Source: Begonia masoniana
Taxonomy: Eukaryota; Streptophyta; Magnoliopsida; Cucurbitales; Begoniaceae
Assembly (NCBI GenBank): GCA_022432975.1
Contig: CM039512.1
Span: 38,131,936 to 38,195,935 of the forward strand
DNA length: 64,000 bases
Direction: 5' to 3'
Program-made: the position numbers and the translations under genes
The notes under the pieces: model-generated
Seen by the model: the letters and a program-made list of their open reading frames with translations, nothing else
What the model was told of the DNA's origin: nothing
Database searches by the model: none
In this document: positions 7,306-62,445 of the stretch, piece by piece
How the letters are laid out: each line of letters opens with the position of its first letter
Numbering within the stretch: the stretch's first letter is position 1

Positions 7306-7958
7306 GTAAGTGAATGTATAGGTTTCTCGGTCAATAGGACCCTACATCAAAGGATGCTAAGTAGAAACTCGTACGATGATTAGTAGTTCTTTCATGTTAC
7401 TGTCTAGCATTTATGTCGACGATTGGTTCGATAGTAAGCTTTTCATACTGGCTGAATGTTCTGTCCTACAGCTTGGACGAGTTAAAGAACCCCATGCTCA
7501 TGCATTATCAATGTTTTATGCACATGAAAATGTTTTAAAAGCATGTTCTCTCATGAACAAGATAAGATGATAAAATCCCTACAACGTGGATGAGTGGGGG
7601 TTGGGGGCGGTTCGGCGTATGTCACAGTCCACAGTAGGACATATGAATACAACCCGCAGTAGGGACCATGATCAAACTCACTGTCGAACACCCTTTACCG
7701 GCACAAATCCTCTCTCATCCCACGCAACATGAACAATGATATGAATAACGAATATGGTTCAGCGATATGGACTATAATACGAACGATGAATGTGTTTCAG
7801 CGATGTGAATTATGTTATGAATGATGAATATGGAATAATGATTATGAACAAGAAAAGACTCATGACCACGTTTTTCTCTGAATTATGCATTCATGCAGTC
7901 ATGTTATTGTTGCATTCCTTACTAAGCATTAGGCTTATAGTTTAAACCTTTGATGTAG
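7306..7958 (+). other. Candidate LTR leader intron with complementary arms (solo LTR 6606-9009)
   Basis: The donor-like GTAAGT is at 7306. The hairpin GGTC-AATAG-GACC (7329-7341) precedes arm 1, CTACATCAAAGG (7342-7353). Arm 2, CCTTTGATGTAG (7947-7958), is its exact reverse complement and ends at the acceptor-like AG. A branch-point-like TACTAAG lies about 35 nt before the AG. The next donor-like site, CAGGTGAGG, follows after 15 nt. The complementarity is observed; splicing is inferred. Confidence 0.45.
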
Positions 7959-8319
7959 GTGACGAGTTTTCAGGTGAGGGATTCAAGTTAAATGAGGAAG
8001 TCTAAGTTTGGCTGTTGGAGAATGCTCAGTGTGACAGTGAAGGCTGGATTGGCGAATAAGTTCTCTGGTTTATGCTCTATGAACATTATTAATGATTTTA
8101 ATATGGAAGTATAAGTAGAATGAAGTTATTCCATAGTACTGGGATTGGAAATTATCTGGATGCTCACTGGATAGAGGATGGTACAGTTTATTGAATATCT
8201 TTTGTTTAAGACTTCCGATATATGTACTCTGAGGGAATTATTGATTTCTGTTTATAGAAATGTTAAGTCTAGAAAGTTTGAGACTTGTTCATGATTATGT
8301 CTATTGGGAGATGTTGTTT

Positions 8320-8840
8320 AGTCCTACCGGTAGGAGTGGTGTGTTTTCTATCGGTAGATGCAGGGTGTTTTCTATCAGTAGTTGTAGTATGTTATCAGTC
8401 GGTAAATATAAAGGATTTCTTTTGCTATCGGTAGAAGTAGTGAGATTTCTGTCGGTAGATACAGTGTGTTTATATCGGGTGATGTAGGAGTCTTTTTCTC
8501 TGTTGCCTAGTCATCGGTAGATGTAGTTTATATATTTTTCCTGCTGACGTCATCGGCAGATACAGTTTGTTTATCTTCCTGCTGACGTCATCGGCAGATG
8601 TAGTTTATATACCTTCCTGCTGATGACAACGGCAGACGCGGTTTGATTATCTGCCGGCTGACGTCATCGGCAGATGCGGTTTGTATATCTGCCGACGAAC
8701 GTTTAATGAATCACGTGAAATGCACGGGATAACCGGAAGATGTAGCTTTGGTTTATCGGTAGATGTGAGCCCTCTCCTGCCTTGTCGTTTAGTGATCGGC
8801 AGATGAGAGTGAAGTTTTGTCGTTGAGTTCGGTAGATGCC
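8320..8840 (+). repeat. Degenerate repeats with ATCGGYAGATG core
   Basis: More than ten variants of CATCGGCAGATG or TATCGGTAGATG are spaced at 25-50 bp, some coupled to CTGCTGACGTCATCGG. They lie in the U5-side position where element I has its 61-bp repeats. Confidence 0.65.
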
Positions 8841-9216
8841 TTTTTTTTTAAAATCCCCCAACCAAATGTCTTATTTCATTGTCCATGTCCTACATGTGAC
8901 TACAGAATTAGTATTTCCGCTGCTTAGTAAAAAAAAATAAAATATATAAAAGAGTGAAAGGAGTGAGTAAAGTCATGAATTACGTGGCGATCCTTCCCGG
9001 GTCGTTACAATTATCGCTAACCGTATCTGTCTGTTTTGGGTTTTGGATTTCAAACTGCACAGAGAACTATACTAAGGATTCGGGAGTGACTATAGCTATT
9101 AGACCCTAGGATGACTTGTGATTAGAACTAATAGGATTTCGTTTTAACCACTGCAATGTAAGCGTTTTAGGTGAAGAAGTTGAAGAGAAAGGAGCTCAAA
9201 TTGCTAAGGAGACCAG

Positions 9217-9907
9217 GTAAGTGAATGTGTAGGTTTCTAGGTCATTAGGACCCTACATCAAAGGATGCTAGGTAGAAACCCATATGATGATTAAAAGTTT
9301 CCCCTTATGTTACTGTCTAATGTTTATGCTGATGATTAGCTCAGTGGTAAGGTTTCACGTCAAATGGTGCTCTGTTCAGTAGCTTGATGGTTTAAGAATC
9401 TTCATGTTCATGCATCATAAATGTTTTATGCATATGAAAATGTTTTAAGAGTATACTTTCTCATGAACAAGATAAGAATATAAAACTTATGCAACGTGAA
9501 TTAAGTGAAGGTTGAGGGCGGTTTGGCGTATGTCACTGTCCAAAAGAAGGACCATGATACGACCCGCAAGGGAACTATGTGCACTCTCACTGTCAAACCC
9601 CCTTTACCGGCACAAATCCTCCCTTAATCCAGACAACGTGAACGAAGAATATGAACAATAAACATGAATGATGTATATGAATGATGATTATGAACAATGA
9701 ATATGAACGATGAATATGAATGATGTATATGAATGATGATTATGAAAAATGAATATGAATGATGAACCAGGATGAAGACTTGAATATGAGTATGAATAAG
9801 AAAAGATTCATGAGCATTTATTTCCTCAAAATGAGCATCCATGCATACTTATTAGTACTGCATTCCTTACTAAGCATTAGGCTTATAGTTTAAACCTTAT
9901 GATGTAG
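9217..9907 (+). other. Candidate LTR leader intron with complementary arms (element I 3' LTR)
   Basis: The donor-like AG/GTAAGT is at 9215-9222. The hairpin is GGTC-ATTAG-GACC (9240-9252). Arm 1 is CTACATCAAAGG (9253-9264). Arm 2 is CCTTATGATGTAGG (9895-9908), complementary with one extra base. TTACTAAGC at 9867-9875 is branch-point-like. The AT-rich short repeats lie between the arms. Confidence 0.42.
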
Positions 9908-13090: not shown

Positions 13091-14347
13091 AATTATGTAA
13101 CATCCGGAATTTCTATTACACGCGTTGTCCTAGTGAGGTCAAGTAGGAGTGATAGGATGACTTAGTTTGAAAAGTCAAACTAATAGAATGCTATTGTGAA
13201 ATTGCATTAAAGGGTGAAAAGTGGTTAAAGAGGGACATTCACGTTGGACATTTAAGTGAAGAAGAGAATTGAAAAGGATTAGGTTTGAAATGTTGAAAAG
13301 TCAAAGTGTTTAGTGTTTGAAAAGTCAAATGGAATGAACCAATTAAATTTTAAAGAAATTGTGTGAATGAAATAATGGTGATTTAATGATGGTTTTGGCG
13401 TTGGATTTAAAGAGAGAAAGTGTGGGAGAGAGTTTGACAATTCAAACTCTTATGATTGGTTGAAATGGGTGTTTGAAAATTTCAAACTTTGAAAAGTCAA
13501 ATTACATAACCAATCAAAAGTTTAGTAAAAATGTAATGGAAATGTGGAGTGGTTTTGTGTGGTTTACGTTGGCTGCCATGGGGAGGAAAAGAAAGGGTTT
13601 AATTGTAAATTCATATGGTCATTAAAGGAATAAAATAAAAGGAAAAATAATGGTATTAAATGTTAAGGTTTTTATTTGTTCTTCTTCTCCTCCATCGCCC
13701 TTTCTCCCTTTCCTCCATAGCCGACGCCACTCCTCCTCCTTTCTTCATTTTCTCAAGGCAATCCAAGGTAATTTCTCATGGGTTTTTAGTTTATTACACT
13801 AAGGAGTTGATTTGTAGTGTTTTTAGGGTGGTTGTGATGGATTTGGTTAGGGTTTGGAAAACCCTAACCATGAATTCCGAATTTTGGTTTCTAAAGTTGG
13901 TTTTCTTTCCAAATTTGGTTAGTTAATTGTCAAATATGTTAGTTTAGGTTAATTAAGTGTTTAGATTGAAGATTGGATGGAAGTTACACAAAAACCGGAA
14001 TTGTGCATCAAAGGGCCGATTCTGTTTTTAAGGAATTCGAGTTGGCTAAGTTGTGTATTTGGTTAATTTAATCATTTCAATGGATAGTAGACGTGTAGAG
14101 CTTTCCGAGTTGGGGTGGCACGTCAAAATCTGTTGAAAAACGAGAAAGTTATGACCGTTTGAAGTTTGATGGTCAATTTTGGGTAAAAATCGGGTTTGAG
14201 TGTTTAGGTTGAAAGATTTGTGTTAGTTGATTTAGTTGAATTCTTTAGAATCCTTTGGAGTATTACTAAGTTGAGTTTTCGTTATTTTAGGTGATTGAAC
14301 GTGTGATTTGGTTGGACGAAGTGGACGAGAGCGTATCGAGCGATCAG

Positions 14348-17300
14348 GTAAGTAGAGGACGTTATGTATTGCCTTCGGGCCTACACCACAGAACGGTAGG
14401 GAATTGTTGTTGGTTGATTTCTTTGCTTTGTTTGAATTGTTGTTATTGTTAGTGTTTGGGTATTGTTGGATAAATTGCTGGTTGTTGTTATTAGTTGGTT
14501 GTTGTTTGCTGTTGGGTGTTTGAGTAATGAACTGCTTGGTGGTTGTTTGTTGCTTGGTGTCTCGAAAGAGATGTACGCTTGGTGTCTCGAAAGAGATGTG
14601 AGATGTACGCTTGGTGTCTCGAAGAGATGTACGCTTGGTGTCTCGAAAGAGATGTACGCTTGGTGTCTCGTAAGAGATGTACGCTTGTGTCTCGAAAGAG
14701 ATGTACGCTTGGTGTCTCGTAAGAGATGTACGCTTGTGTCTCGAAAGAGATGTACGCTTGGTGTCTCGTAAGAGATGTACGCTTGGTGTCTCGTAAGAGA
14801 TGTACGCTTGGTGTCTCGTAAGAGATGTACGCTGGGTGTCTCGTAAGAGATGTACGCTTGGTGTCTCGAAGAGATGTACGCTTGGTGTCTCGTAAGAGAT
14901 GTACGCTGGGTGTCTCGTAAGAGATGTACGCTTGGTGTCTCGAAAGAGATGTACGCTTGGTGTCTCGTAAGAGATGTACGCTTGGTGTCTCGTAAGAGAT
15001 GTACGCTTGTGTCTCGAAAGAGATGTACGCTTGGTGTCTCGTAAGAGATGTACGCTTGGTGTCTCGAAAGAGATGTACGCTTGGTGTCTCGAAAGAGATG
15101 TACGCTTGGTGTCTCGAAAGAGATGTACGCTTGTGTCTCGAAAGAGATGTACGCTTGGTGTCTCGAAGAGATGTACGCTTGGTGTCTCGAAAGAGATGTA
15201 CGCTTGGTGTCTCGAAAGAGATGTACGCTTGGTGTCTCGAAAGAGATGTACGCTTGGTGTCTCGTAAGAGATGTACGCTGGGTGTCTCGTAAGAGATGTA
15301 CGCTTTGTGTCTCGTAAGAGATGTACGCTTTGTGTCTCGTAAGAGATGTACGCTGGGTGTCTCGTAAGAGATGTACGCTTGTGTCTCGAAAGAGATGTAC
15401 GCTTGTGTCTCGAAAGAGATGTACGCTTTGTGTCTCGTAAGAGATGTACGCTTGGTGTCTCGTAAGAGATGTACGCTTGGTGTCTCGTAAGAGATGTACG
15501 CTTGGTGTCTCGTAAGAGATGTACGCTTTGTGTCTCGAAAGAGATGTACGCTTGGTGTCTCGAAAGAGATGTACGCTTTGTGTCTCGAAAGAGATGTACG
15601 CTTGTGTCTCGAAAGAGATGTACGCTGGGTGTCTCGTAAGAGATGTACGCTTTGTGTCTCGTAAGAGATGTACGCTTGGTGTCTCGAAGAGATGTACGCT
15701 TTGTGTCTCGAAAGAGATGTACGCTTGGTGTCTCGAAAGAGATGTACGCTTGGTGTCTCGAAGAGATGTACGCTTGTGTCTCGAAAGAGATGTACGCTTG
15801 TGTCTCGAAAGAGATGTACGCTGGGTGTCTCGTAAGAGATGTACGCTTGTGTCTCGAAAGAGATGTACGCTTGTGTCTCGAAAGAGATGTACGCTTGTGT
15901 CTCGAAAGAGATGTACGCTTGTGTCTCGAAAGAGATGTACGCTTGGTGTCTCGAAAGAGATGTACGCTTTGTGTCTCGAAAGAGATGTACGCTTTGTGTC
16001 TCGTAAGAGATGTACGCTTTGTGTCTCGAAAGAGATGTACGCTGGGTGTCTCGTAAGAGATGTACGCTTTGTGTCTCGTAAGAGATGTACGCTTGGTGTC
16101 TCGAAAGAGATGTACGCTTTGTGTCTCGTAAGAGATGTACGCTTTGTGTCTCGAAAGAGATGTACGCTTGGTGTCTCGAAAGAGATGTACGCTGGGTGTC
16201 TCGTAAGAGATGTACGCTGGGTGTCTCGTAAGAGATGTACGCTGGGTGTCTCGTAAGAGATGTACGCTGGGTGTCTCGTAAGAGATGTACGCTTTGTGTC
16301 TCGAAAGAGATGTACGCTTGGTGTCTCGTAAGAGATGTACGCTGGGTGTCTCGTAAGAGATGTACGCTGGGTGTCTCGTAAGAGATGTACGCTGGGTGTC
16401 TCGTAAGAGATGTACGCTTTGTGTCTCGTAAGAGATGTACGCTGGGTGTCTCGTAAGAGATGTACGCTGGGTGTCTCGTAAGAGATGTACGCTTTGTGTC
16501 TCGTAAGAGATGTACGCTGGGTGTCTCGTAAGAGATGTACGCTTTGTGTCTCGTAAGAGATGTACGCTTTGTGTCTCGAAAGAGATGTACGCTTGGTGTC
16601 TCGAAAGAGATGTACGCTTTGTGTCTCGTAAGAGATGTACGCTTTGTGTCTCGTAAGAGATGTACGCTGGGTGTCTCGTAAGAGATGTACGCTGGGTGTC
16701 TCGTAAGAGATGTACGCTTTGTGTCTCGAAAGAGATGTACGCTTTGTGTCTCGTAAGAGATGTACGCTGGGTGTCTCGTAAGAGATGTACGCTGGGTGTC
16801 TCGTAAGAGATGTACGCTGGGTGTCTCGTAAGAGATGTACGCTTTGTGTCTCGTAAGAGATGTACGCTGGGTGTCTCGTAAGAGATGTACGCTTTGTGTC
16901 TCGAAAGAGATGTACGCTTTGTGTCTCGAAAGAGATGTACGCTTTGTGTCTCGTAAGAGATGTACGCTTGGTGTCTCGAAAGAGATGTACGCTTTGTGTC
17001 TCGTAAGAGATGTACGCTTGGTGTCTCGAAAGAGATGTACGCTGGGTGTCTCGTAAGAGATGTACGCTTTGTGTCTCGAAAGAGATGTACGCTTTGTGTC
17101 TCGTAAGAGATGTACGCTTTGTGTCTCGTAAGAGATGTACGCTTGGTGTCTCGAAAGAGATGTACGCTTTGTGTCTCGTAAGAGATGTACGCTGGGTGTC
17201 TCGTAAGAGATGTACGCTTGGTGTCTCGAAAGAGATGTACGCTGGGTGTCTCGTAAGAGATGTACGCTTTGTGTCTCGAAAGAGATGTACGCTTTGTGTC

Positions 17301-18342
17301 TCGTAAGAGATGTACGCTTTGTGTCTCGAAAGAGATGTACGCTTTGTGTCTCGAAAGAGATGTACGCTTGGTGTCTCGAAAGAGATGTACGCTGGGTGTC
17401 TCGTAAGAGATGTACGCTTGGTGTCTCGAAAGAGATGTACGCTGGGTGTCTCGTAAGAGATGTACGCTTGGTGTCTCGAAAGAGATGTACGCTTTGTGTC
17501 TCGAAAGAGATGTACGCTGGGTGTCTCGTAAGAGATGTACGCTTTGTGTCTCGAAAGAGATGTACGCTTTGTGTCTCGTAAGAGATGTACGCTTTGTGTC
17601 TCGAAAGAGATGTACGCTTGGTGTCTCGAAAGAGATGTACGCTGGGTGTCTCGTAAGAGATGTACGCTGGGTGTCTCGTAAGAGATGTACGCTTGGTGTC
17701 TCGAAAGAGATGTACGCTTTGTGTCTCGTAAGAGATGTACGCTTTGTGTCTCGTAAGAGATGTACGCTTGGTGTCTCGAAAGAGATGTACGCTGGGTGTC
17801 TCGTAAGAGATGTACGCTGGGTGTCTCGTAAGAGATGTACGCTTTGTGTCTCGTAAGAGATGTACGCTTTGTGTCTCGTAAGAGATGTACGCTTTGTGTC
17901 TCGTAAGAGATGTACGCTTTGTGTCTCGTAAGAGATGTACGCTTGGTGTCTCGAAAGAGATGTACGCTTGGTGTCTCGAAAGAGATGTACGCTTGGTGTC
18001 TCGAAAGAGATGTACGCTTTGTGTCTCGAAAGAGATGTACGCTGGGTGTCTCGTAAGAGATGTACGCTTTGTGTCTCGAAAGAGATGTACGCTTGGTGTC
18101 ACCCGAGGGTCCTCTATGAAGACTTAAAGCAATGAACAGCAAGATTAAAGCAACGAACAACAAATAAGCACAACTGAGTGATAGAAATTGCATGTGTTAG
18201 GTTGATTGCACTGTGTGTGTCGTGTTGAGTGGAGTTGTGTTGTTTTGTAGGGTAGGATGGTGTGTGCATGTTCTTGTTATATTTGTTACTCCCTACTTGC
18301 TAAGCGTAAGCTTACGTGTGTGTGTGGTGTTCTGTGGTGTAG
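14348..18342 (+). other. Candidate LTR leader intron with 15-bp complementary arms around the minisatellite
   Basis: The donor-like CAG/GTAAGT has its GT at 14348. The hairpin is GCC-TTCG-GGC (14371-14380). Arm 1 is CCTACACCACAGAAC (14380-14394). Arm 2, GTTCTGTGGTGTAGG (18329-18343), is its perfect reverse complement about 4 kb away and contains the acceptor-like TAG. CTAAG at 18300-18304 is branch-point-like. The 25-bp array lies between the arms. Confidence 0.5.
14556..18103 (+). repeat. 25-bp minisatellite, about 140 copies, GNRA-hairpin unit
   Basis: The unit is GTGTCTCGAAAGAGATGTAC plus GCTTG or a variant. The main variants are GAAA or GTAA in the middle and TTGG, TGGG, TTTG or TTG (24 bp) at the junction; some units have GAA only. 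The left third is richer in 24-bp variants, while from about 16000 the array is almost purely 25-bp. TCTC-GAAA-GAGA and TCTC-GTAA-GAGA can both fold as GNRA tetraloop hairpins. Long open frames on the minus strand (14381-18193) result from a stop-free repeat and are not a gene. Confidence 0.97.
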
Positions 18343-18913
18343 GTAACGACAGGTGTATAGGTGAGCTATGTGAGTCAGCCAAGACTTGGGAGCAGTCGGA
18401 GACGCACGGGGCGTGCCCGGTGCGGGCAGTTGTGGGGCAACTCCACTATGGTCTTCGGGAGATGTGGGGTATATTTGATAGTTTATTTTAGATGTTTGTT
18501 TGTAGAAATGATGGGAAAGTGTACCTAATTGTAATTGTTGTATATAGTTAGGTTAAGGGTGTTGTGTCGCCCTGTATTTGGAGGTTTTTATATGTGGGAT
18601 TGTTGATTGGATAGCTGGTTAGTGAAGTGAGATTATTCTGGATTGTTTGGGATTGGATTGTATGCAGGTATCTAGCATTTTGGAGGCGCCATTTTCAGGC
18701 GTTACTTTGCCGAAATTTTCGGGAAGGACGCCGTGGTGCTTAAAGGTTAGGATTAAAGGAGTCTAGGCAACTAGGTATGACCTAAAATAGTTTTAGAAGA
18801 TTTAGTTTAAATCCTACGGTGTTAATTTTATTTTTTTTAATGAGGTTTTAGCGTGGGATTAGTTAGCAAAGTAGCGTTCCGAGCCAGGGTGGGTTCGGGG
18901 GCGTTACAAATTA

Positions 18914-19830: not shown

Positions 19831-20584
19831 TCTTGTAACGCTCCCGAACCCACCCTGGCTCGGTGCGCTACTTTGCTAAGCAATCCCATGCTTAAACATA
19901 ATTTAAAATAAAACTGACACAGCAAAATTTAAAGCTAAGTCTCCCAAAGCTCTCTCTCATGTCATACCTAGCTGCCTAGACTCACTAATTTTCTTTTATC
20001 CTAACCATTAGGTACCACGGCGACCTCCCCGAAAATTTTGACAAAGTAGCGCCTGAAAATGGCGCCTCCAAAATGCTTACCTGCAAACGAATAAATCCTA
20101 ACCAATCTAGAATACTCCTATTCAACTTATCCAGCATACGAAATCACCAAATAGTCGTAAAGAGGGAAACTAAAATACTAACAAATCTAAGTGAAGAAAG
20201 TCCACAGTATAGGGCGACGCATCACCCTTAACTATGACTATATACAACAAATACAATAAGTTACGCATTCCCATCGTTTCTACAAACAAACATATAAAAT
20301 AAACTATCAAAATATAAAGCCCCACATCCCCCGAAGACCATGGTCGAGGCTCCCCAACAACTGCCTGCACCGGCATGCCCCGTGCGTCTCTGACTGCTCC
20401 CAAGTCCTGGCTTACTCACTTAACTCACCTGTAACCGCGTCGTTACCTACACCACAGAACACACACACACGTAAGCTTACGCTTAGCAAGTAATGAATAA
20501 CACGAATGTAAACAAACACAATGCACACACCGCCTCCTAACACATGCCAATGCTACTCACTCTGCTATTTTCTTACTCACTCAT

Positions 20585-20910
20585 GCACGTTAACGACGAG
20601 ACGTTAAACCCTCTAGTGCTACTTGCACTTTAACAACGAGGCGTTCAACTCCCTAGGGCATGCTCTAGCACGTTAACGACGAGTCGTTAAATCCTCTAGT
20701 GCATCTTGCACTTTAACGACGAGGCATTTAACTCTCTAGTGCATACTCTAGCACATTAAGGATGAGACGTTAAATCCTCTAGTGCATCCTGCACTTTAAC
20801 GACGAGGCATTTAACTCTCTAGTGCTTACTCTAGCACCTTAACGACGAGTCGTTAAATCCTCTAGTGCATCCTGCACTTTAACGACGAGGAATTTAACAC
20901 TCTAGTGCTT
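20585..20910 (-). repeat. Tandem repeat, about 41-bp half-units (83-bp pairs), hairpin-forming
   Basis: Roughly eight half-units alternate between GCACGTTAACGACGAGTCG and GCACTTTAACGACGAGGC types, each ending CTCTAGTGC. TTAACGAC-GA-GTCGTTAA is a perfect inverted repeat within alternate units. The array lies between the arms of the leader module, where solo LTR 13096-18908 carries the 25-bp array instead. Confidence 0.85.
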
Positions 20911-21519
20911 TTCTTACACGTTTCATGCTTACCACTCTTATTTTCATAGCTTCAACATTACATATGCCATTCACACAATATTCGCTTACCACTCTTATTT
21001 TCATAGCTTAAACATTACATATGTCATTCACACAATATTCAAACACCAAACAACAACCAAGAATTTCATCACACAACACTCAAACACCAAATAATAACAA
21101 CCCAGCAATTTATCAAACAATACTCAAACACTAACAATAACAACCCAGCAATTCATCAAACATTACTCAAACACCAAACAATACACTATCAAACAATAAA
21201 TCCTACCGTTCTGTGGTGTAGGCCTGAAGGCGACAAAACACAAAATCCATTACTTATGTAACACCCCTAGTACTGTACCCGTATTTCCCGTACTATATTT
21301 ATTTATTTATTTTTTTTTTTTTTATCCTCACATTTTATAACTTTAAAACCTAACGTTAAAGCGGAATTGAAATCGAAACCGAAACCGGAATCGAAGTTTG
21401 TTTGGTAAATCATTTAAAACATAAACTAAAACAATTTAAATAAAACTTAAAACATTTAAATATTTAATAAAAATTAAAGCAGGGGCAGAATCGGAACCAT
21501 TCGCTGCCAAAAGGAGGCG

Positions 21520-21670
21520 GCGATCGATCTCTGCAAACTGCAGAGATCGATCGCTGCATGCTTGCATGCAGCAAGCGATCGATCTCTACTTTTAAGCAGA
21601 GATCGATCGCTGCATACCAAGCAAGGGCGGCGATCGATCTCTGCTTTTTCAGCAGAGATCGATCGCTGCA
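21520..21670. repeat. Array of three long hairpins built on GCGATCGATC
   Basis: Three near-perfect inverted repeats have arms GCGATCGATCTCTGC and its complement, centred near 21537, 21593 and 21650. The loops are short and differ from each other. GCTGCATGCTTGCATGCAGC between the first two is also self-complementary. The tract lies at the U5 side of the solo LTR. Confidence 0.9.
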
Positions 21671-22246
21671 CACTATGCAGTGATCCCTCCCTTCCTTCAT
21701 TCAATAGACTTTAACACTTCATACTTCACAGCATCAAACACATCGATTTGTTCTCTGGAATCCGATTTCCAGGGAGAAAATCATCTTCTTCCTTTCACTA
21801 GTAATCACCATAACTCACAACCTGCACTCAACCGATTAAAACATAATCTAAACTCAATCGACTCGCGTCGGACTTTGCGAAGTCCAACTGCGTGGACAGC
21901 TCTAAAAACCGAGCCTATCCGTAACCACCTAAAAGCATTTCAAAACATTTTCTATAACATTCAAATAAAAGACTTAACAAAACGTTTTAAATACGATTAC
22001 CCAAAACATTTGAAACGTCAAAAGTAAACCTATCAACTACCAGACCAAGCATCCTAATATGCTCAATACAAATTAACATCAGCCCAAACATCCTGAAAAT
22101 CCCAAAATCTATACATACTTCCCCCACGGGTCATAACGCGCCTCGACTGCCCAGCGCACTCTCACGGGCCATCATCCATCAACTACCTCAGACATCAGAA
22201 GGAGGAACGTCGTCCTCACCTGGATCTATGTCACCTAGAACGTCAC

Positions 22247-22811
22247 CTACACCATAAAGACATCTATGAGATAATGAAATCTCAGTAAGCTACGTAAATG
22301 CAGATGCATGCGTGCGTATGCCATTCAGAAATCATGCAGATTCAGATTCAGATACAGATTCATTACGTCGCAGACAGACAGATTGTCACCGAGATCGCAA
22401 CCCACTAACCAGAGAGAGCCCATCCTGCGGTCGGACTACTCTTTCCAGCTAGAGGAGGGGGTACACGCTTGCAACACGCACAGCCGTGCCTGAGCCCCAC
22501 CTCGCGTGACCAGATACAGACAGATTACATTCATTCATTACAGAGGTTCGTTTTCTTTTCTTAAAACACGTGCGGAAATTCATTTTCATGACATTTGAAA
22601 TACGTGATGCATGAACAGATATGAGCATAATATAAACATACAATAAACAAGCACATGTATACCATCAAGACTGAAATAGAATAACCTAAAACAATCATAA
22701 ACCTATCTACCCAACCAAAGCAATTTTAAACAAATAACGCTTCAGGGATCCTCGATACGACAACGAAGTATGGTGTAGACCAATTGGTCAGAGTAAGTCA
22801 CGGAAACTTAC
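22247..22811 (-). other. Candidate LTR leader intron with complementary arms (solo LTR 21257-23821)
   Basis: On the minus strand the donor-like AAG/GTAAGT (plus 22806-22813) is followed by ACTTAC, which can pair with GTAAGT. The hairpin is GACC-AATT-GGTC (22778-22789). Arm 1 is CTACACCATA (22769-22778). Arm 2 is TATGGTGTAG with the acceptor-like TAG/G (22246-22256). CTTACTGAG is branch-point-like. Confidence 0.45.
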
Positions 22812-24952
22812 CTTGAGCGCACAGATTCTCGAGCTTCGTCCAAGAGAGTCGTTCACCTAAGCAATTCGAAGCTCTTATCGTTAAAACAAATTTAAACTTC
22901 TAAACGTCCAACTTCAACGAAACCTTAACTAAGGGATTTCTTAAAACTTCTAGCTCATCAAATCGAGATACTTAAACGACTAATTCATACTCGATGGTTC
23001 GAAATTACAATTAACGAACTTTTCCAAAAATTCCTAATTTTTAACCTTTTTACGATTTGATTTAACTTCGTCTAATAACGTCAAATACGTCAAATATATA
23101 CTTAATCATGGCTAACCTATTAATTACGAACCCTAAATCTCATTTTTAACGAAAATCGATCGAAACCCTAATTACCTAAAACGCCGTAAACGTCAAAATA
23201 AAAGCTCTAAGAACGTAGATGCATACCTAGGATAGCGAGAGGAGGAGAAACCGTGAAGGTTCGAAGTCGATCGGAGGTCGGAACGGAGCTCGGCGTCGTC
23301 GGCAGAGGAGAAACCGAGGGTTTCTTCTCTTCTCTGGTCGCGGGAGAAAGAAAAAGACAGAATGGAAATTGATTCTGCCGAAGGAAGAGGATTTTTGTTT
23401 TATAAATTAAATATTTACTTTGTAAATTACCATTTTGCCCTTCTTTAGTTTTTATATTAGTTTCGTCCTTCGGTTCGTTAATCGTCCAGCTGTTTGGTTT
23501 CACTAAACCTCCTTATTTCACCAACAAGTCCAATGTAATATTTCGGATTTAATAAAACTGTCTGTTCGCAAATCGGACCTCGTTTACTATTTTTACAAGA
23601 ACGTCTTTTACATTACGAAAAGTGTATTTACTCAGAATATAGTATTTGATCTCCGAAAATTTTCATAAATTCCTTAAAATTCTTATTATTCGTTAGAATC
23701 GTAATGACGCTTTCTTTTCGTGAAACGGACCTGATTTGACATATTTACCAAAAGTGTCATTATATAATAGAATAACAATAAAATATATTATATCTGAAAT
23801 CCGTACAAGCCGGATATTACAACTTACCTGGCATCCTAGCTCGCTGGGTTTGGCACATCACGTCACCTATGGCTCGACCTACGACAAATATTAAAACTTC
23901 ATTAAAATCGAGCTTACATTCACCAATTTACTCTCAAACTACTATTTCTATCCTAATCCAACTAAAACCTAACCAAATGGCCATTAATTTTGGTTCGTTA
24001 AAAACCGACCTAAAACTTCAGACGCGCGTAACTTTTGCATCGGTTATCAGAATCGAACGATTCCAGCGGCCACGTACTCTTCTAATAACCTATTTTAATC
24101 CGCCAGAAGGAATTTTAAAACAAATGACCGTAGCTAGGTTAAAATGGCAAAAACCTGATTCTACCCTTAAATCGAATTTTTCCCCTTTTCTGGTTTTTCA
24201 TCAATTCACACCAATTTCGTCACCAATCAATCCCCCTCACATCCAATCAGCACAATTTAATTGAATTCCAAGGCTTAACCTAGAGAACCCGAACCCCACA
24301 CATTGGGAGTTCTCGGTTTTTAGCCCCAATCGGCACTCTCCCTTGCCCGACCATTCACGCCGGTCTAAGCCCAGCCATTTGATGCCGAGACTAGCCAAAA
24401 AAATGGCCGGTGGTCGGAGCCCAAGCTGGCTCTCCATTCACGGCCTCAAGCAGAACGAAAACAGGGAAGAGAAGCTACCTGTTTTCGGTCGGGTCTGGCG
24501 CGGAGAAAGCCGAACCGAGCTCCGGCTTCAGCTCACCGGAGTTCGCTCGTCTGAACAGTGGCCGGAATCGCATGGTCGCCGTCGGAGGGAGGTCGCTCGC
24601 GCTCTTCTCTCGTCGGGGCTCGGGTTACAAAAGCAAAGCAGAATGGCTTCTTTGTGAAGCCATTTTTTTTCTATATATATATATTTTTTTATTTTTTTTA
24701 TTTTAGTTAAATGACTAAATTGCCCTTACATATTTGAACTTCCGTATTTTTGTTAATTTCGCGTCCACTCGACCTAAAATTTTAGAAACTCTCTTTCAAA
24801 TAAAATCCCAAGTTTTTAATAAACTAAATAACCCGTTAAATTCCATAAATTGACTCTCTAATCCTTCCTTTCTAAATTTAAATAATTTTAAGATCCATAA
24901 CTTTATTAAATCTAAAGCAGTACACATTGAGGAAAAATTCTCGGGTGTTACA

Positions 24953-32610: not shown

Positions 32611-33599
32611 TGTAACACCCGGTTCTTTACGGGATATTAATATTTTAATGTTGATGACAATTTTGAATATATATCAAATCAAGTCCATTTCATGAAAAGA
32701 AAGCGTTATTACGATCCTAATAATTAATAAAGATTTTAAAAAATTTTCGGAAATTTAGGAGTTGTAAAGCTAATTTTACGAGAATTACGCTTCTCGTAAT
32801 ATAAAGGACGTTTTAGTAAAAATAGTAACTGAGGGCCGATTTGCAAACGGACAATTTTAATAGAACCCTGGTAGTAAGTTGGATTTATTGGTGAAATAAG
32901 AAAATTTGGAGAAACCGAATCGTTAGACAATTAACGAAACGAGCGACGAAACAAATAGAAAATCAAAAGAAGGACGAAATGGTAATTTACAAAGTCAAAA
33001 ATTTAATTAAAAACATAAGTTTTCTCCTCTTCTCCCTCATTCACGATTTCTCTCTTTTCCTCTAAAAAACTCTAAGGCGATTTTTCTCCCTCAACGGCTT
33101 TCTCCCTCTCCGTTGACGATTCGTCTTCTGTTCGACTCGTTTTCTTCATGTTTTCTCCTCCTCTCGCAACCCTAGGTATGATTCTATAGTTTTGGAAAGT
33201 TATTGTTCTGTTTTCGCGAGGTTTCACGGTTAGGGTTTTGTTTAGGTTTTGTTAAAAACGTGAATTAGAGTTCAGAATCGATAGCTTTACCATATTTGTG
33301 AGTATATTAAACGTATTAAACGTTATTGGACGAAATCTAGAGGGAATACGGTGTTTAGGTTTAAAACCAGACATTTGGAGCTTGAAAATCTCCGTCAATG
33401 GAGTTTAGAAAGTTACGAGCGTGAGTTGCTCGGTAAAATGTCTCATTGAGTTAAGTTAGAATTTTAGGAGAATTTACTTAGTTAAGGTTTCATTAAATTT
33501 GGACGTTAAACAGTTTAATCTCGTTTTAACGACAACTATTGTGTTTTTCCTCAGACAAACGACGCTCGTGGACAGAGGTCGAAGTTCAGCGCGCGCAAG

Positions 33600-34151
33600 G
33601 TAAGTTCTCGTGACTTACTTGGCCGAGTGGCCTACACCGTACCTCGATGTCACTTTGAGGAATATTGGAGTTTATTTGTTTATATGCTTTGGTCGAGTAG
33701 ATAGGGTTAGTTCCTTATATGTTATGTTTTTTATAGTCTTGATGGTATGCATGATGATTGTTTACTTTATGTCTTCAACTGTTCATGCATCACAAATTTT
33801 AAAATAGCATGAAAAAGGATCTCTGCACGTTTTATGAAAATAAAATGGACTAATGCAAAGAAAATACGTAATCTGTTATCTGTTATCTGGTCATGAAAGG
33901 TGGGGCTCAGGCATGGCTGTACAGGTTTTAAGCATGTACCCCCCCTCTCTAAGTGGAAAGTGTTGTCCAACCGCTGGAAAAGCACTCTCCATTTAGGGGG
34001 TTGAGACCTCAGTGGCATCTCTGTATCTGTTATCGGAACGATCTATAATGTTAAGTAATCTGCATAGTTTCTGAACTTCATACGCACAGCATGCATCTGC
34101 ATTTACGAAACTTACTAAGCCTTTAGCTCATAGTGTGTCTGTATGGTGTAG
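33600..34151 (+). other. Candidate LTR leader intron with complementary arms (element B 5' LTR)
   Basis: The donor-like AAG/GTAAGT has its GT at 33600. GTAAGT can pair with ACTTAC at 33613-33618. The hairpin is GGCC-GAGT-GGCC (33621-33632). Arm 1 is CCTACACCGTAC (33631-33642). Arm 2 is GTATGGTGTAGG (34141-34152), with 11 Watson-Crick pairs and one G-U. CTTACTAAG (34111-34119) is branch-point-like, 34 nt before the AG. CAGGTGAGG follows after 15 nt. Confidence 0.48.
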
Positions 34152-34745
34152 GTGATATCGAAACAGGTGAGGACAACGTTCCTCCTCCTGAAGCATGAGT
34201 TTAGTTGAAGAAGAATGATTGCGGGAGTGTGCTGCCGCAGTCGAGGCGTTTCATGACCCGTGGGGACGTATGTAGGTATTTTGGGTTGTTTTGTGTAGAA
34301 CATGTGTAGGTAAATTAATCGTACAATTAGAAACATTCTAGGGTGTTTGGATCTGGATAGTGGATAGGTTTATGTTTTGATTGTTTGGAAACTTATTTTG
34401 GTAAAATATTTTCGGAAAGTCTTTTATTGAAAATATATTGGAACTGTGTGGTAATTTAAAACAGGGGAAGTTGGTTAGTTTTTACACGGATCCATGCAGT
34501 TCGTTTTAGTTGAAACGTATTTCGTGTTAAATTTGTCTCGGGTCAGTTTTGAGTGAGATTATGGAGGATGTATGAGTATCGGGTGGTTGGCCGTCAAATT
34601 GTATTGTGAAGGTGTATGTGGTGTTATTGGTAATTGAGGAAGAAGTTGTGTGTTAGGTGTTTATAGATGTTGTGCAAGAGAAGAAGAAAGAAAGGAGGAC
34701 GGAAGAGGAGGGAGCCGAGCTCTCTGGAAAAATTCCAGAGAGCTT

Positions 34746-34921
34746 GGCGATCGATCGCCTGTTTTGGACGATCGATCGCCCCTCCTTGGTCGCGCCTAGA
34801 AGTGCTATCGCCTGGAGAGGCTATCGGTGGGAAAAATGAGATCGCCTGGAATGGGGCGATCAATCGCCCCTCAGTTTTTTTAACAGGCCATCGATCTCCT
34901 GTTTTGGGCGATCGATCGCCC
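34746..34921. repeat. Palindromic GGCGATCGATCGCC block, element B 5' LTR
   Basis: Four or more GCGATCGATCGC-type palindromes are separated by short spacers such as TGTTTTGG. The 3' LTR counterpart (41969-42122) differs from it by several small indels. Confidence 0.9.
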
Positions 34922-35182
34922 CTGTGTAAAATGGGACAATTTTCCCTTTTGTCCCTCAAGGTGTTTTCTGTTGTTTTTAATTATTTTAAATTTGTTTTAT
35001 AATTTGTTTTAAGTTTTGTTTAAATGGTTTATAAACATAGACTTCACCGATTTCAATTCCGATTTCAATTCCGACTTTACAAGTTTTAATTCTGCTCAAA
35101 CGTTATTAAAGTTATAAAGTTAATAAAGATAAAAAAAATAATACGTGAAAATTAGGATACGGGTAAGGGTCGCTACAAGTTA

Positions 35183-35265: not shown

Positions 35266-35330
35266 GTAAGCATGTTTAAATGCTTTCTTCGATTTTGATT
35301 TCTTAGGATTACTTGCTTTTAAATTTATAG
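35266..35330 (+). other. Candidate short leader intron before gag, element B
   Basis: CAACT/GTAAGC is followed 65 nt later by a T-rich TTTATAG/G, ten bases before the gag ATG at 35341. The position and flanks match element I (1575-1637). Confidence 0.4.
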
Positions 35331-40820: not shown

Positions 40821-41373
40821 GTAAGTTCTCGTGACTTACTTGGCCGAGTGGCCTACACCGTACCTCGATGTCGCATTGAGGAATATTGGAGTTTATTTGT
40901 TTATATGCTTTGGTCGGGTAGATAGGGTTAGTTCCTTATAGGTTATGCTTTTTATAGTCTTGATGATATGTATGATGCTTATTTACTTTATGTCTTTAAC
41001 TGTTCATGCATCACGTATTTTAAAATAGCATGAAAAAGGATCTCTGCACATTTTATAAAAATGAAATGGATTAATGCAAAGAAAATACGTAATCTGTATT
41101 TTTTATCTAGTCATGGAAGGTGGGGCTCAGGCATGGCTGTACAGGTTGTAAGCATGTACCCCCCCCCTCTCTAAGTGGAAAGTGTTGTCCAACCGCTGAA
41201 AAAGCACTCTCCATTTAGGGGGTTGAGACCTCAGTGGCATCCCTGTATCTGTTATCAGAACGATCTGTAATGTTAAGTAATCTGCATGGTTTCTGAACTT
41301 CATACGCACAGCATGCATCTGCATTTACGAAACTTACTGAGCCTTTAGCTCGTAGTGTCTCTGTATGGTGTAG
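40821..41373 (+). other. Candidate LTR leader intron with complementary arms (element B 3' LTR)
   Basis: The donor-like GT is at 40821. The hairpin GGCC-GAGT-GGCC lies at 40842-40853. Arm 1 is CCTACACCGTAC (40852-40863) and arm 2 GTATGGTGTAGG (41363-41374). Both arms are unchanged from the 5' LTR, although the region between them has diverged. Confidence 0.48.
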
Positions 41374-45689: not shown

Positions 45690-46259
45690 GTAAGTGATAA
45701 GTGTGTATTTTATACACTTTATTGTACTCTTTTATATTTGATATGATAAGTTTTACTTAAGTATGTAAATGATTCTAATAACTTTGGTGTAAGTGTGTAA
45801 CGACCCCAAAATTTAATTTGAATTTTTCCCCAATTTGAAAACCCTAAAAATTTTTCCCCAAATTGATTTGCAAATTAGGTTAAATTGGATCGTTATAAAA
45901 CCCTAATTTTCTTAATTTAAAATTTTTGAAAATACAAAAATCATTTAATAAAGCGGAATCCTTAAAATTAATATCAATAAATATTTAGAACATTAAATGC
46001 TAAACAAATATTAAATAAAAACTTCATTCATAAAATCTTTTAAAAACAATAACGTACTTAATAAAAATCCTAGCAGTTGATGTAATAAATTATTCCAACT
46101 TAAAATAAAATGCAACAAATTATAAAATATCTTTTAAATAGATATAAAAGCATAACTTAAATTTTTATTCAAAACCAATGGCAACATCCTCCTCTGTATG
46201 CTCTCCTGCCTCTGGAGGATTCTCGAGCACAGCTAGTTCTTCCTCAGATAAAAACTCAC

Positions 46260-46762
46260 CTACATCACAAAATTAAATACTATGAGAAAAACTCAGTAAG
46301 CGAAAATATGTGCAAGTGTCAACTTTTACTTTTTCTCAAATCCTGTTTTATCAGTTACATACTGGTTAGAACTTGTTCCAACCCTCGGTCAAACATCACC
46401 TCTAGTTAGAACTTGTTCCAACCGTCGGCCAAATATCACATATAGTTGGAACTTGTTCCAATCACCTCTAGTTAGAACTTGTTCCAACCGTCGGTCAAAT
46501 ATCACATATAATTGGAACTTGTTCCAATTATCACCTCTAGTTAGAACTTGTTCTAACCGTCAGCCAAATATCACATACTTTCCATCAATTCCATCGTTTT
46601 CATACACATGCAAATATCCTATCAAATTTTATCTTTTTAACAAATTCTATGTCAATATCTACAGCTCAAATATCAAAAATATAAAATAAAGCTGTAATAA
46701 AATATAGATTTTGTGATGCAGGGCATAGCCAAAACATTTGAAAAAGTGATATTTTCACTTAC
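46260..46762 (-). other. Candidate LTR leader intron with complementary arms (solo LTR 45796-47905)
   Basis: On the minus strand the donor-like CCAG/GTAAGT is at plus 46757-46766. The hairpin is GGC-TAT-GCC (46722-46730). Arm 1 is CTGCATCACAAAAT (46708-46721). Arm 2 is ATTTTGTGATGTAGG with the acceptor-like TAG (46259-46273). The arms pair over 14 positions with one G-U. CTTACTGAG is branch-point-like. Arm sequences differ from all other families here, yet the pairing is kept. Confidence 0.48.
46365..46577 (-). repeat. Tandem repeat, composite unit of about 66 bp, between the module arms
   Basis: The unit pairs TAGTTAGAACTTGTTCCAAC plus CGTCGGYCAAATATCACATA with a shorter TAGTTGGAACTTGTTCCAAT plus CACCTC. 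About three composite units are present. GGAACTTGTTCC is itself palindromic. Confidence 0.85.
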
Positions 46763-60126: not shown

Positions 60127-60774
60127 TTGTCACGACTCGTACATCGCGACACACTTGACATACATTTAAACTTTCAAAAAATTAAAATAACCGAACTTGA
60201 AGTTTAAATTCCTTTAAATCCTTTTAAAATAAGTGGGAAACATTTATAAAATAAGTTTGGAAGAATTCATTGAAAGTTGGATGATTGACAAATGAACGGT
60301 AATTAATCGGCTCAAAGGAGTGACTAAGGTGTCATTAAAAGATACAACAAGATAGGCTAAGAAAACTCAAACGGTTCAATGATGGCCTAAGTCATTCTCT
60401 TATTTGTGAAAAACTTCAATTTGTTTTCGTGGATGTTGGGCAAAACCAAGAAAGATTTTTCTTACTAGCACTCGTTAAATTTATCTAGAGTTCCGCTGCC
60501 TTACTGTGTTTAGACTTTACTCTTAGTAGACTACATGAATATAACACCAACAGATCAAATAAAAAAAAAGAATGAAATCGTGCCCAGGATTTTGAGTTTA
60601 ACTTTGTAAGCTCAAGTCAATGCTAACTTAACAAGTCATCTTTTACTTAGAGTTTTTCTAGGGACTAAAGCATAATTTATTTAAAATTTCAGTCATAGAC
60701 ACCTCAACCAATATTTTCAATTACAACACTACAGTAAAAACATATCAGAATCATAATATAAGCTAAAATCACTC
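60127..60774. other. AT-rich non-coding sequence, no gene recognised
   Basis: TGTCACGACTCG at 60127 could be an LTR end, but no partner or TSD was found. On the minus strand this region lies downstream of the Tat-like tail and may be its LTR. Confidence 0.35.
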
Positions 60775-61187
60775 CCCAAACTAAAAACAGATAGTGTCCT
60801 CAATGTAAGAAAAATATAAATGGTGAGGTAAAGTAGCATACCTTATGATGTCCGCGGTTGATCGTCGTCCTGACCCTCTTGTGAAGGGTCATATGGATGA
60901 AGTAAGTGCTCCGGGAAGACAGGTAAAGGGGGTTGGATGGATCCGAATGGTTATATCGAGAATTTAATGCGCCTACATTTCGTGCTATAAAAGATGTCTG
61001 CTCCAGTGCATGGCTTTGCATGCTCATCAATCGATGTTCCATGCGGGTTTGTTGAGCAGTAAGATTTTTCATCATTCGCCCTAACTCATCAATTGGGAAT
61101 GAACGGGGTGGTATGGTTGATGATGATGATACGTTTTGATCATGTTGTGTAGAGGAATGACCTTCATATCGCTGTTTAAGGTGATTT
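60775..61187 (-). pseudogene. 3' tail of a Tat/Athila-like element, minus strand
   Basis: The minus-strand frame from about 61187 gives LKQRYEGHSSTQHDQNVSSS, then FPIDELGRMMKNLTAQQTRM and EHRLMSMQSHALEQTSFIA, a glutamine-rich coiled-coil-like segment. It is followed by CATTGAGGACACTATCTG and TAGTTTGGGGAGTG. That coding-end plus polypurine arrangement is characteristic of plant Tat/Athila-type elements and their non-autonomous derivatives. The upstream part is cut at 61187 by the next LTR. Confidence 0.6.
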
Positions 61188-61978
61188 TGTAACACCTGAT
61201 TTTACGGGTTTTTAGATTTTCTGTATAATGACATTTTAGTGAATATTGTGAATTAAGTCCGTTTTACGAACGGAAAGTTTTATTGGAACCCTCGTGGTTT
61301 GTCAGAATTTGTGGAGAAACCAAAATCGATAGTTAACTAACGAGATAAATGAAAAATCAAAAGGAGGGGCAGAATAGTAATTTGACAAGTCAATTGTATT
61401 AAAAATCACACAACCCCTCCCCTTTCCCAGCACTTCACGATTTTTCATCCCAAAAACCACTCTCTGGCAATTTTTTTCTCCTCCCCTACGATTCTTCACG
61501 GTTCAAATGCTCCTCCTTCAACCGATCAATTTCCTTCACGTTTTCTTCCTCAATCGCGACCCTAGGTAAGGTTCTAACGTTTTGGATGTTAGTCTTCGAT
61601 TTTTAATGTTGTTATTCAATTAGGGTTTGTTGAGTTAGGGATCGAAATTATGGAATTCGTTGTAAATGGATAGTTTAACCATAGTAATGCTCATTGATGA
61701 TACATTTATGAGTAGTGGTAATAGTTAGTGAAACTTGTAGTTGATGATGGATTTAGGTTGTTGGAAAACTGTTAATGGGGGTTTTTGTAATGTTGAGCTC
61801 AAATTGTTTGACGAAATGCCCCAATGAAGTAGAATGCAGTTTAGGAAGTTTCCTTTAGCTTGGAGTTTCGTCTAGCTTTGGAATTTAATTATTGAGGGCT
61901 GATTCTAATAACGAAAATTGTGAAATATCCTAGATAGACGAAGCTTACAGACGGCACTCGGCTCGCTAAGGACGTCAG

Positions 61979-62445
61979 GTAAGTTATCGTGACTTGCTTG
62001 GCCGATAGGCCTACACCATACGTCGAGTTTTCCATTGTTGAGGATAAATGGTGAAATGTTTGTTTATGTACTTTTGGATGTGTAGTTTATGTTTAGTTGT
62101 CCCGTAGGATATACTTTTATGTTGTTTTGATGGTACTCACGTTCTTTATGCTTATGTTATGCATTTAACTACCCATGCATCATGTTTTTACAAAATGTCA
62201 GGAAAATAGATTTATGCATTGATTTCATGAAAAAGAAATTAATGAAAGTAAAGTGAAATGTAAATAACCTAAGACGACTTAGACGACTAAGACGACTAAG
62301 ACGATTGAGATGAATGAGACGACTAAGACGACTGAGACAACTAAGATGACTAAGACGACTGAGATGAATTACATATACATGTTTATGCATAGCATTTACG
62401 TAGAATTTACTGAGATTTATCTCATAGGCGTCTCTATGGTGTAAG
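61979..62445 (+). other. Candidate LTR leader intron with complementary arms (LTR 61188-64000)
   Basis: The donor-like CAG/GTAAGT has its GT at 61979. The hairpin is GGCC-GATA-GGCC (62000-62011). Arm 1 is CCTACACCATAC (62010-62021). Arm 2 is TATGGTGTAAGG (62435-62446), paired over nine bases with one extra A. TTTACTGAG is branch-point-like. The duplication creates a second copy of arm 2 at 63369-63380. Confidence 0.42.
62266..62360 (+). repeat. Short precursor array of the GACGACTAA minisatellite
   Basis: GACGACTTA, GACGACTAA, GACGATTGA and GATGAATGA units form an irregular 9-bp-based array just before the acceptor-like arm. The 27-bp array at 62743 is built from the same words. Confidence 0.85.

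What the first reader, a model, noticed from the sequence alone, without database searches (positions are those of the whole stretch)
7306..62445. Covarying long-range stem bracketing a variable region in eight LTR types
Eight LTR types (element I 9217-9907; solo 7306-7958; solo 14348-18342; element A minus 20447-23827; solo minus 22247-22811; element B 33600-34151 and 40821-41373; solo minus 46260-46762; LTR 61979-62445) each carry two arms that are reverse complements over about 9-15 bp. The arms differ between families (CCTACACCACAGAAC; CCTACATCAAAGG; CCTACACCGTAC; CTGCATCACAAAAT), but the partner changes with them, with some G-U pairs. Matching changes in sequences 0.5-4 kb apart are the signature of a conserved RNA stem. 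The loop holds unrelated, fast-changing tandem repeats. I know of no described LTR feature of this kind.
Basis: partly seen in the sequence, partly recalled or inferred. Interest (0 to 1): 0.92.

Follow-up and report, generated by a model that had tools for sequence, protein, structure and literature searches.

The report
Self-locking intron inside plant retrotransposon LTRs
The end repeats of several jumping-gene families in one plant genome each carry an intron-like stretch whose start and end are matched by two sets of co-changing complementary words, predicted to fold over both splice sites; this would likely let the element keep some of its RNA uncut as a genome to copy.

Summary
The nine listed segments are not LTRs. 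Each starts at a GTAAGT 5' splice site and ends at TGTAG|G (TGTAAG|G in one) inside a longer LTR (2.1-5.8 kb where delimited), so it is laid out as a spliceosomal intron in Ty3/gypsy elements (probably Tekay). I found a second covarying long-range helix (P0): the 5' splice site (+1..+14) pairs with about -50..-37. P0 and P1 cross (a pseudoknot). Short covarying hairpins abut P1 (HP2) and P0 (HP3). A scan of 1,365 window pairs gave these two peaks only; upstream intron 1 gave none. Over 27 pairs in 9 copies, 94.6% of cells pair, 10 pairs change on both sides, and covariation is twice that of shuffles. Limits: four sequence groups, one genome, no RNA data; within single introns, helices of this length are not rare. 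Most likely the fold hides the splice sites and keeps part of the RNA unspliced as genome. The rival is that it bridges a variable-length intron and helps splicing.

The parts
32611..35177 (+). 5' LTR of element B (3' LTR 39831-42365); iMet-type PBS follows at 35183
33025..33175 (+). B5 exon 1 (inferred; start chosen from a TATA-like box): CT-rich leader ending CCCTAG before GTATGATTC
   Evidence: reading of sequence
33176..33554 (+). B5 intron 1 (inferred), 379 nt, ..TTTTTCCTCAG; no conserved end pairing (negative control)
33555..33599 (+). B5 exon 2 (inferred), 45 nt
33600..34151 (+). B5 structured intron 2: GTAAGT..TGTAG
33600..33613 (+). P0 5' strand = 5' splice site
33632..33643 (+). P1 5' strand; hairpin HP2 (GGCC-GAGT-GGCC) lies just before and shares its first C
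34102..34115 (+). P0 3' strand, ends ACTTAC (also branch-site-like)
34116..34130 (+). hairpin HP3 next to P0 (one mismatch in B5)
34140..34151 (+). P1 3' strand = 3' splice site
34152..34166 (+). exon 3 (inferred), 15 nt before a possible further 5' splice site AG|GTGAGG
35266..35330 (+). possible intron between PBS and gag ATG of B (GTAAGC..TTTATAG, 65 nt)
1575..1637 (+). possible intron between PBS and gag ATG of element I (GTAAGT..TTTGTCTAG, 63 nt)
40821..41373 (+). structured intron 2 in the 3' LTR of B: P0 40821-40834/41324-41337; P1 40853-40864/41362-41373
7306..7958 (+). structured intron 2 in solo LTR 6606-9009: P0 7306-7319/7909-7922; P1 7342-7353/7947-7958
9217..9907 (+). structured intron 2 in 3' LTR of element I: P0 9217-9230/9857-9870; P1 9253-9264/9896-9907 (one bulge)
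190..299 (+). 3' end of intron 2 and start of exon 3 in the 5' LTR of element I (5' side outside the window)
14348..18342 (+). structured intron 2 (3,995 nt) in solo LTR 13096-18908: P0 14348-14361/18287-18300; P1 14381-14392/18331-18342
20447..23827 (-). structured intron 2 of element A, split after GTAAGT by solo LTR 23821-21257; 811 nt without it; P0 3' strand 20499-20486; P1 21221-21210/20458-20447
22247..22811 (-). structured intron 2 in solo LTR 23821-21257: P0 22811-22798/22298-22285; P1 22778-22767/22258-22247
46260..46762 (-). structured intron 2 in solo LTR 47905-45796: P0 46762-46749/46309-46296 (14 bp); P1 46721-46710/46271-46260
61979..62445 (+). structured intron 2 in the LTR starting at 61188; one extra A in the P1 3' strand; its 3' end is duplicated at 63300-63406

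Best explanation
Each bracketed segment has the borders of an intron lying inside the LTR of a plant Ty3/gypsy element, and its RNA is predicted to fold into two crossing, covarying long-range helices that cover the 3' splice site (P1) and the 5' splice site with a branch-like sequence (P0), which would likely hold part of the transcripts unspliced so that they can serve as the genome. Shown by sequence: the borders, their place inside LTRs, the two helices and two flush hairpins, and their covariation between sequence groups. Inferred from the copies: the nine LTR copies, both LTRs of B included, carry the segment, and a search for a copy with exons 2 and 3 joined found none, so the RNA that was reverse-transcribed for these copies was unspliced here, whichever promoter made it. 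Inferred: splicing of the leader (exon 1, intron 1, exon 2, intron 2, exon 3) gives a short leader with 0-1 ATG before gag-pol translation, while the locked, unspliced form keeps the primer-binding site and the intron. Untested: that the fold forms in cells, that it lowers splicing, and that loop length (0.4-3.9 kb) sets how late the lock can close after U1 snRNP has had its chance to bind.
For: Borders: AG|GTAAGT in 8 of 9 copies (AA|GTAAGT in 7306); TGTAG|G at the 3' end in 8 of 9 (TGTAAG|G in 61979). P1: best of all tested windows of its own intron in 9 of 9; permutations among six representatives reach the observed helix run in 6 of 720 and the observed pair count in 12 of 720, and 1 of 24 (the minimum) with four group representatives. 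P0: own mean -12.2 vs cross-group -7.0 kcal/mol; permutations 7 of 5040 and 1 of 24; without the invariant GTAAG, 26 of 5040, 1 of 24, and 2 of 24 with other representatives. Scan of 1,365 window pairs on 8 of the 9 copies (B3 left out): only P1 (z -7.0) and P0 (z -5.7) stand out; intron 1 as control (seven copies) has nothing below -3.04 kcal/mol. Combined: 94.6% of 242 cells paired vs 85.0% in shuffles, 10 of 27 pairs changed on both sides (1 of 500 shuffles as high), covariation 0.364 vs 0.181 (0 of 500), slid registers at most 0.079. HP2 ends at the P1 arm in 9 of 9; such a G-C-rich hairpin ends at 7.4% of background positions. Sense orientation: 12 G-U vs 4 A-C cells. No intron-less exon 2-exon 3 join in the window (the profile is weak for 14348, A and 46260). 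Parallel: sequences of the HIV-1 major splice donor are sequestered by pairing in the packaged fold (PMC4576207, passages).
Against: No RNA data. Four sequence groups from one genome, so the real number of independent changes is small, and the structure was derived from the same sequences. The number of further pair types is not above shuffles (338 of 500; 179 of 500 for P1 alone), and for P1 alone the number of pairs changed on both sides is not either (94 of 500). Whole-intron folding without pseudoknots puts P1 in the minimum-energy fold of 6 of 9 copies, not in I3, B3 or 61979. Longest-helix length is not unusual against shuffles in I3, 22247, B5, B3 and 61979. For P0, a few windows elsewhere pair better in 5 of 9 copies. 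Burying splice sites could be a by-product of bringing them together. ATG scarcity in the inferred leader is no greater than composition predicts (76 of 300 shuffles at or below the observed count). Intron 1 was not assigned in the 45796-47905 LTR, and AG|GTGAG of exon 3 is absent from 46260. The nine copies were found by their intron borders, so intron-less relatives outside the window are not excluded. In sunflower, Tekay was absent from the set of expressed elements (PMC7730604, passage), so transcription itself may be rare.
Confidence: 0.5

Rival explanations
1. The two helices act as a bridge: they loop out the variable repeat and bring 5' splice site, branch region and 3' splice site together, so that the intron is likely spliced efficiently whatever its length.
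For: The arms keep nearly fixed distances to both splice sites (P1 starts at +33 to +42 and ends at -1) while the loop ranges from about 0.4 to 3.9 kb. P0 joins the 5' splice site to the branch-like CTTAC. Bridging by long-range pairing is known, e.g. Dscam1 (review PMC11802352, passages).
Against: Both splice sites lie inside helices rather than beside them, and pairing begins exactly at the first and last intron bases, which a bridge does not need. The nine copies kept the intron and no intron-less join was found, so the RNA copied into them was not spliced here.
Confidence: 0.22
2. The fold is mainly a tag of unspliced RNA, such as a packaging, dimerisation or export signal; covering the splice sites is how the tag is tied to the unspliced state.
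For: All helix strands are intronic, so splicing would remove the structure. HIV-1 packaging structure likewise includes the splice donor (PMC4576207, passages). A structured export element is reported for mouse MusD (review PMC12786077, passages).
Against: No protein-binding or packaging evidence; the variable loop would be odd in a compact signal.
Confidence: 0.14
3. The segment is not removed as an intron; the arms serve another RNA function such as end-to-end pairing of the genome RNA, with transcription starting inside the segment.
For: RNA-level cyclisation by LTR sequences is recalled from yeast Ty1 and Ty3 and was not looked up here. No transcript ends are known for these elements.
Against: It does not explain the invariant GTAAGT and the conserved TGTAG|G at the exact helix ends, nor the intron 1, exon 2 and PBS-gag intron signals around it.
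Confidence: 0.08
4. Chance complementarity plus shared ancestry: arms inherited within families, without selection on pairing.
For: Few independent groups; helices of 9-11 bp are common inside these introns.
Against: Same two places in all four groups, with both strands changed, even between the close relatives A and 14348 (own -13.9 and -13.7, swapped -8.9 and -8.8); nothing comparable elsewhere or in intron 1.
Confidence: 0.06

Closest known systems
HIV-1 leader / packaging signal with sequestered major splice donor (PMC4576207, passages seen)
   Same: A retroelement leader whose 5' splice site is base-paired in the fold of unspliced RNA.
   Different: Here both splice sites are covered, by two crossing long-range helices, and the whole intron lies in the LTR; no packaging data.
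BARE1 (Ty1/copia, barley), spliced and unspliced RNA pools (PMC3735527, passages seen)
   Same: Plant LTR element that divides transcripts between translation and replication, with splicing involved.
   Different: BARE1's 104-nt intron is in the coding region near the end of gag, not in the LTR, and the passages seen describe no splice-site structure.
[quoted passage not shown]
   Same: Partial splicing of a plant Ty3/gypsy element.
   Different: The Ogre intron is internal and its removal allows translation of the whole polyprotein; here the intron is in the LTR.
Nonconventional introns of euglenids (PMC4770533 and PMC6221363, abstract openings in the search listing)
   Same: RNA structure that brings both intron ends together.
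   Different: Those have non-canonical borders; these are GT-AG with a GTAAGT 5' splice site.
Conserved long-range pairings near processing sites of human pre-mRNA (PMC8052449, abstract opening in listing)
   Same: Long-range complementary regions tied to RNA processing.
   Different: Host genes; nothing seen there about both splice sites of one intron inside a repeat.

Membership tests
Tekay/Del chromovirus (Ty3/gypsy) | gag, protease, RT, RNase H and integrase domains of Ty3/gypsy order | tested here: met
   Pfam hits RVP_2, RVT_1, RT_RNaseH and Integrase_H2C2 in I; Retrotrans_gag in B; rve in I just below cut-off
Tekay/Del chromovirus (Ty3/gypsy) | C-terminal chromodomain | tested here: inconclusive
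   PF00385 at 21.2 bits, E 2.7e-4, under the 25.1-bit cut-off, element I only
Tekay/Del chromovirus (Ty3/gypsy) | placement in the Tekay clade of a pol tree | not tested
   no tree made; Tekay is recalled from the TGTAAC..TTACA LTR ends and iMet PBS
U2-type spliceosomal intron | GT-AG borders with U1-matching 5' splice site | tested here: met
   GTAAGT in 9 of 9, terminal AG in 9 of 9 (A read across its nested solo LTR)
U2-type spliceosomal intron | branch site and pyrimidine tract | tested here: inconclusive
   CTTAC (CTTGC in A and 14348, TTTAC in 61979) followed by TRAG, about 36-43 nt from the 3' end, inside P0/HP3; no U-rich tract by eye
U2-type spliceosomal intron | removal from RNA | not testable with these tools
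   no transcript data; the genome search 'own' did not complete in 8 tries
Group II intron or other catalogued ribozyme (hammerhead, retrozyme) | match to a curated RNA family | tested here: not met
   no Rfam 15 family at gathering threshold in the window
Euglenid nonconventional intron | non-canonical borders | tested here: not met
   borders are GT-AG
HIV-1-like leader switch | 5' splice site paired in unspliced RNA | tested here: inconclusive
   predicted by P0 covariation; no probing
HIV-1-like leader switch | selective packaging of the folded RNA | not testable with these tools
   needs particles and RNA

The most novel reading that the evidence does not exclude
Plant Ty3/gypsy elements carry in their LTRs a pseudoknotted intron in which 5' splice site, branch region and 3' splice site are all locked in two crossing helices. 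The lock is a built-in switch between spliced mRNA and unspliced genome, and also the mark by which genome RNA is recognised: a plant counterpart, evolved separately, of the HIV-1 leader switch, in which the variable repeat in the loop tunes the switch kinetically.
Probability: 0.27. Interest if true: 0.87.

Novelty: new variant of a known kind. Interest (0 to 1): 0.72.

Why it matters
An intron inside an LTR should be lost whenever a spliced RNA is copied, so its presence in four sequence groups poses the question of how an element stops itself from losing it; a covarying fold that covers both splice sites gives a direct, testable answer. It would tie splicing control to genome RNA in plant Ty3/gypsy elements. 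A 2025 review says that plant LTR elements generally lack introns, naming Ogre and EVADE among the exceptions (PMC12786077, passage). It would also explain how tandem arrays can grow freely inside LTRs: they sit in the loop of a locked intron.

Tried and rejected
Coding reading of the exons: the phase-1 frame is open across the junction in several copies (39 codons in B5), but B5's ATG is GTG in B3 and ACG in the 21257 and 61188 LTRs, other copies have stops or a shifted frame, and the differences between B5 and B3 in exons 2 and 3 that I read all change the residue (by eye). Dropped as a protein.

Terminal inverted repeats of a DNA transposon: the 5' arm is 32-41 bases inside the segment, and exon-like sequence outside is conserved. 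Ribozyme families: no Rfam match at gathering threshold.

A hairpin of the 5' splice site with ACTTAC (ACTTGC in 61979) at about +15 occurs in the B group only (by eye), so it is not part of the common fold.

More copies from elsewhere: integrase and RT searches of viral contigs (one locus, a chimera without the borders; none) and genome contigs (three loci; neither border profile reached E 1 in any). RT against plasmids gave 3 records below 60% identity, not followed. L002, a plant-like contaminant in a bacterial assembly, holds an LTR tail that I also read by eye without finding the module. The B5 intron segment against plasmids: no match. Integrase against the protein database: 7,999 hits, 120 listed; the named ones are mostly eudicots and give no species.

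Intron-less LTRs: a profile of exon 2 joined to exon 3 matched only one-sided pieces at the known copies in the window, apart from four weak hits of E 3 or more; it is weak for 14348, A and 46260.

Literature: searches, in an open-licence library only, showed in their listings no report of an intron wholly inside a plant LTR or of this fold; subscription papers are not held.


Full report
1. What the segments are. Each starts with GTAAGT after AG (8 of 9; AA in 7306) and ends with TGTAG before G (8 of 9; TGTAAG in 61979). They lie inside longer LTRs. Four of these are solo LTRs with 5-bp target-site duplications: 6606-9009 (ATTAT), 13096-18908 (AATTA), 23821-21257 minus (TAAGT) and 47905-45796 minus (CACTT). 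Element B has two LTRs, 32611-35177 and 39831-42365, the first followed by an iMet-type primer-binding site at 35183 (the PBS motif is recalled). Solo LTR 6606-9009 sits in element I's 3' LTR. Solo LTR 23821-21257 sits directly behind the GTAAGT of element A, so A's segment is 811 nt without it. The elements are Ty3/gypsy by Pfam. A chromodomain in element I is weak, 21.2 bits against a cut-off of 25.1. The clade name Tekay is my inference and no tree was made.

2. A gene-like leader. In most LTRs printed a CT-rich, ATG-poor stretch follows a TATA-like box and ends at a 5' splice-site-like AG|GTATG, AG|GTAAG or similar. An intron 1 of 327-612 nt then ends in AG; it was assigned by eye in 7 copies and in B3, not in the 45796-47905 LTR. 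Exon 2 is 45-57 nt in the six LTRs measured. Both I and B carry one more intron-like stretch of 63 and 65 nt between PBS and the gag ATG. In the six LTRs measured, the inferred spliced leader of 165-227 nt holds 0-1 ATG while intron 2 holds 19-150. The scarcity in the leader is no more than composition predicts (76 of 300 shuffles at or below the observed 3).

3. It begins with the last intron base paired to a C at +33 to +42 and runs inward. The own-arm duplex beats all other tested windows of the same intron in 9 of 9 copies (0 of 66-252 windows on one side, 0 of 74-260 on the other). In strict register the helix run summed over six representatives reaches the observed value in 6 of 720 permutations, the plain pair count in 12 of 720. 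Without the invariant first five pairs, the distal duplex energy reaches it in 10 of 5040. On seven distinct rows 5 of 14 pairs change on both sides (94 of 500 shuffles as high), 11 cells do (0 of 500), and the covariation score is 0.310 against 0.158 in shuffles (0 of 500).

4. P0, found here. While listing the longest helices I saw 13-14 bp starting at intron +1 in A and 46260. In all nine copies +1..+14 pairs with the bases that end at -36 to -43, just before hairpin HP3, with bulges or internal loops in I, 7306, 14348 and the B group; own mean -12.2 against -7.0 kcal/mol across groups. A and 14348 are close relatives with identical P1 arms, yet in P0 both strands have changed: own -13.9 and -13.7, swapped -8.9 and -8.8. 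Without the invariant GTAAG the permutation counts are 26 of 5040, 1 of 24 and 2 of 24. An unaimed scan of 1,365 window pairs (8 of 9 copies, B3 left out) put P1 (z -7.0) and P0 (z -5.7) at the top with their overlapping neighbours and nothing else beyond z -3.0. Intron 1 (seven copies) gave no cell below -3.04 kcal/mol, against -6.31 for P1 and -5.18 for P0.

5. Whole module. P0 (1-14 with about -50..-37) and P1 (from +33-42 with -14..-1) cross, so together they are a pseudoknot. HP3 (TRAG..CTYA) follows P0 directly, because P0's end was placed by that motif. Counted together on nine rows: 94.6% of 242 cells paired, 10 of 27 pairs with changes on both sides (1 of 500 shuffles as high), covariation 0.364 (shuffles 0.181, 0 of 500 as high; slid registers at most 0.079). 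The number of further pair types is not above shuffles (338 of 500 at least as high). The 27 pairs include 12 G-U and 4 A-C cells, as expected for the sense RNA.

6. Results against. Within single introns the helices are not unusually long for five of nine copies, and for P0 some windows elsewhere pair better in five of nine. Folding without pseudoknots keeps P1 in 6 of 9 minimum-energy folds, 14348 being a shortened construct. Copy 61979 has an extra A in the P1 3' strand, also present in its tandem copy at 63300-63406. The data are four sequence groups from one genome; the shuffles do not correct for relatedness, and the structure was read from the same sequences. L002, a plant-like contaminant with an LTR tail, does not match the border profiles, so generality outside this genome is open.

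7. Mechanism. If splicing removed intron 2 from the RNA that is reverse-transcribed, the new LTRs would lack it. The nine copies have it, and a profile of exon 2 joined to exon 3 found no intron-less copy in the window (a weak profile for three copies), so the RNA behind these copies was unspliced here. This holds whether the genome RNA starts upstream of the intron (intron in R/U5 at the 5' end) or near the LTR end (intron in U3 at the 3' end); the promoter was not determined. A fold that pairs the first and last intron bases, and covers the branch-like CTTAC, is the kind of structure that would hide the intron from the spliceosome. I therefore commit to a splicing lock (0.5), with a bridging role as main rival. 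The HIV-1 leader, whose splice-donor sequences are sequestered by pairing in the packaged fold (PMC4576207, passages), is the nearest functional parallel; BARE1 is the nearest plant parallel for separate RNA pools (PMC3735527, passages). Resemblance to either is of function, not membership. In sunflower no Tekay element was in the expressed set (PMC7730604, passage), so the RNA may be hard to catch.

8. Novelty. In the searches named under Tried and rejected I saw no report of a whole intron inside a plant LTR or of covarying helices at both its splice sites. The 2025 review says plant LTR elements generally lack introns, with Ogre and EVADE as notable exceptions (PMC12786077, passage). The library is open-licence only, so this is a lead, not proof of novelty.

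Noticed in passing
window 1575-1637 and 35266-35330: Both element I and element B have an intron-like stretch between PBS and gag ATG with similar borders (ACT|GTAAGY .. TAG|GAAT).
   Followed up: partly
window 62744-63243: 18.5 copies of a 27-bp unit at 100% matches, next to a duplication (62269-62749 ~ 63197-63685) that also copies the 3' end of intron 2 and exon 3; it looks recent.
   Followed up: no
window 14552-18100: About 142 copies of a 25-bp unit expand one intron 2 to 4 kb; the array is open in all three minus-strand frames over more than 1,200 codons.
   Followed up: no
window 34748-34930 and 63880-63915: Palindromic GCGATCGATCGC-like words recur in the 3' part of LTRs of the B group (by eye).
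   Followed up: no
window 21257-23827: A solo LTR of one family inserted directly after the 5' GTAAGT of another family's LTR intron, TSD TAAGT.
   Followed up: yes
L002 1-1230: A scaffold filed under Labilibacter sediminis encodes a plant-like Ty3/gypsy element (RT 79% identical to element I in the best segment) with an LTR tail and tandem repeats: probably contamination.
   Followed up: partly
L001 1-240: An IMG/VR contig begins with a plant-like integrase fragment joined to phage-like genes: probably a chimeric assembly.
   Followed up: no
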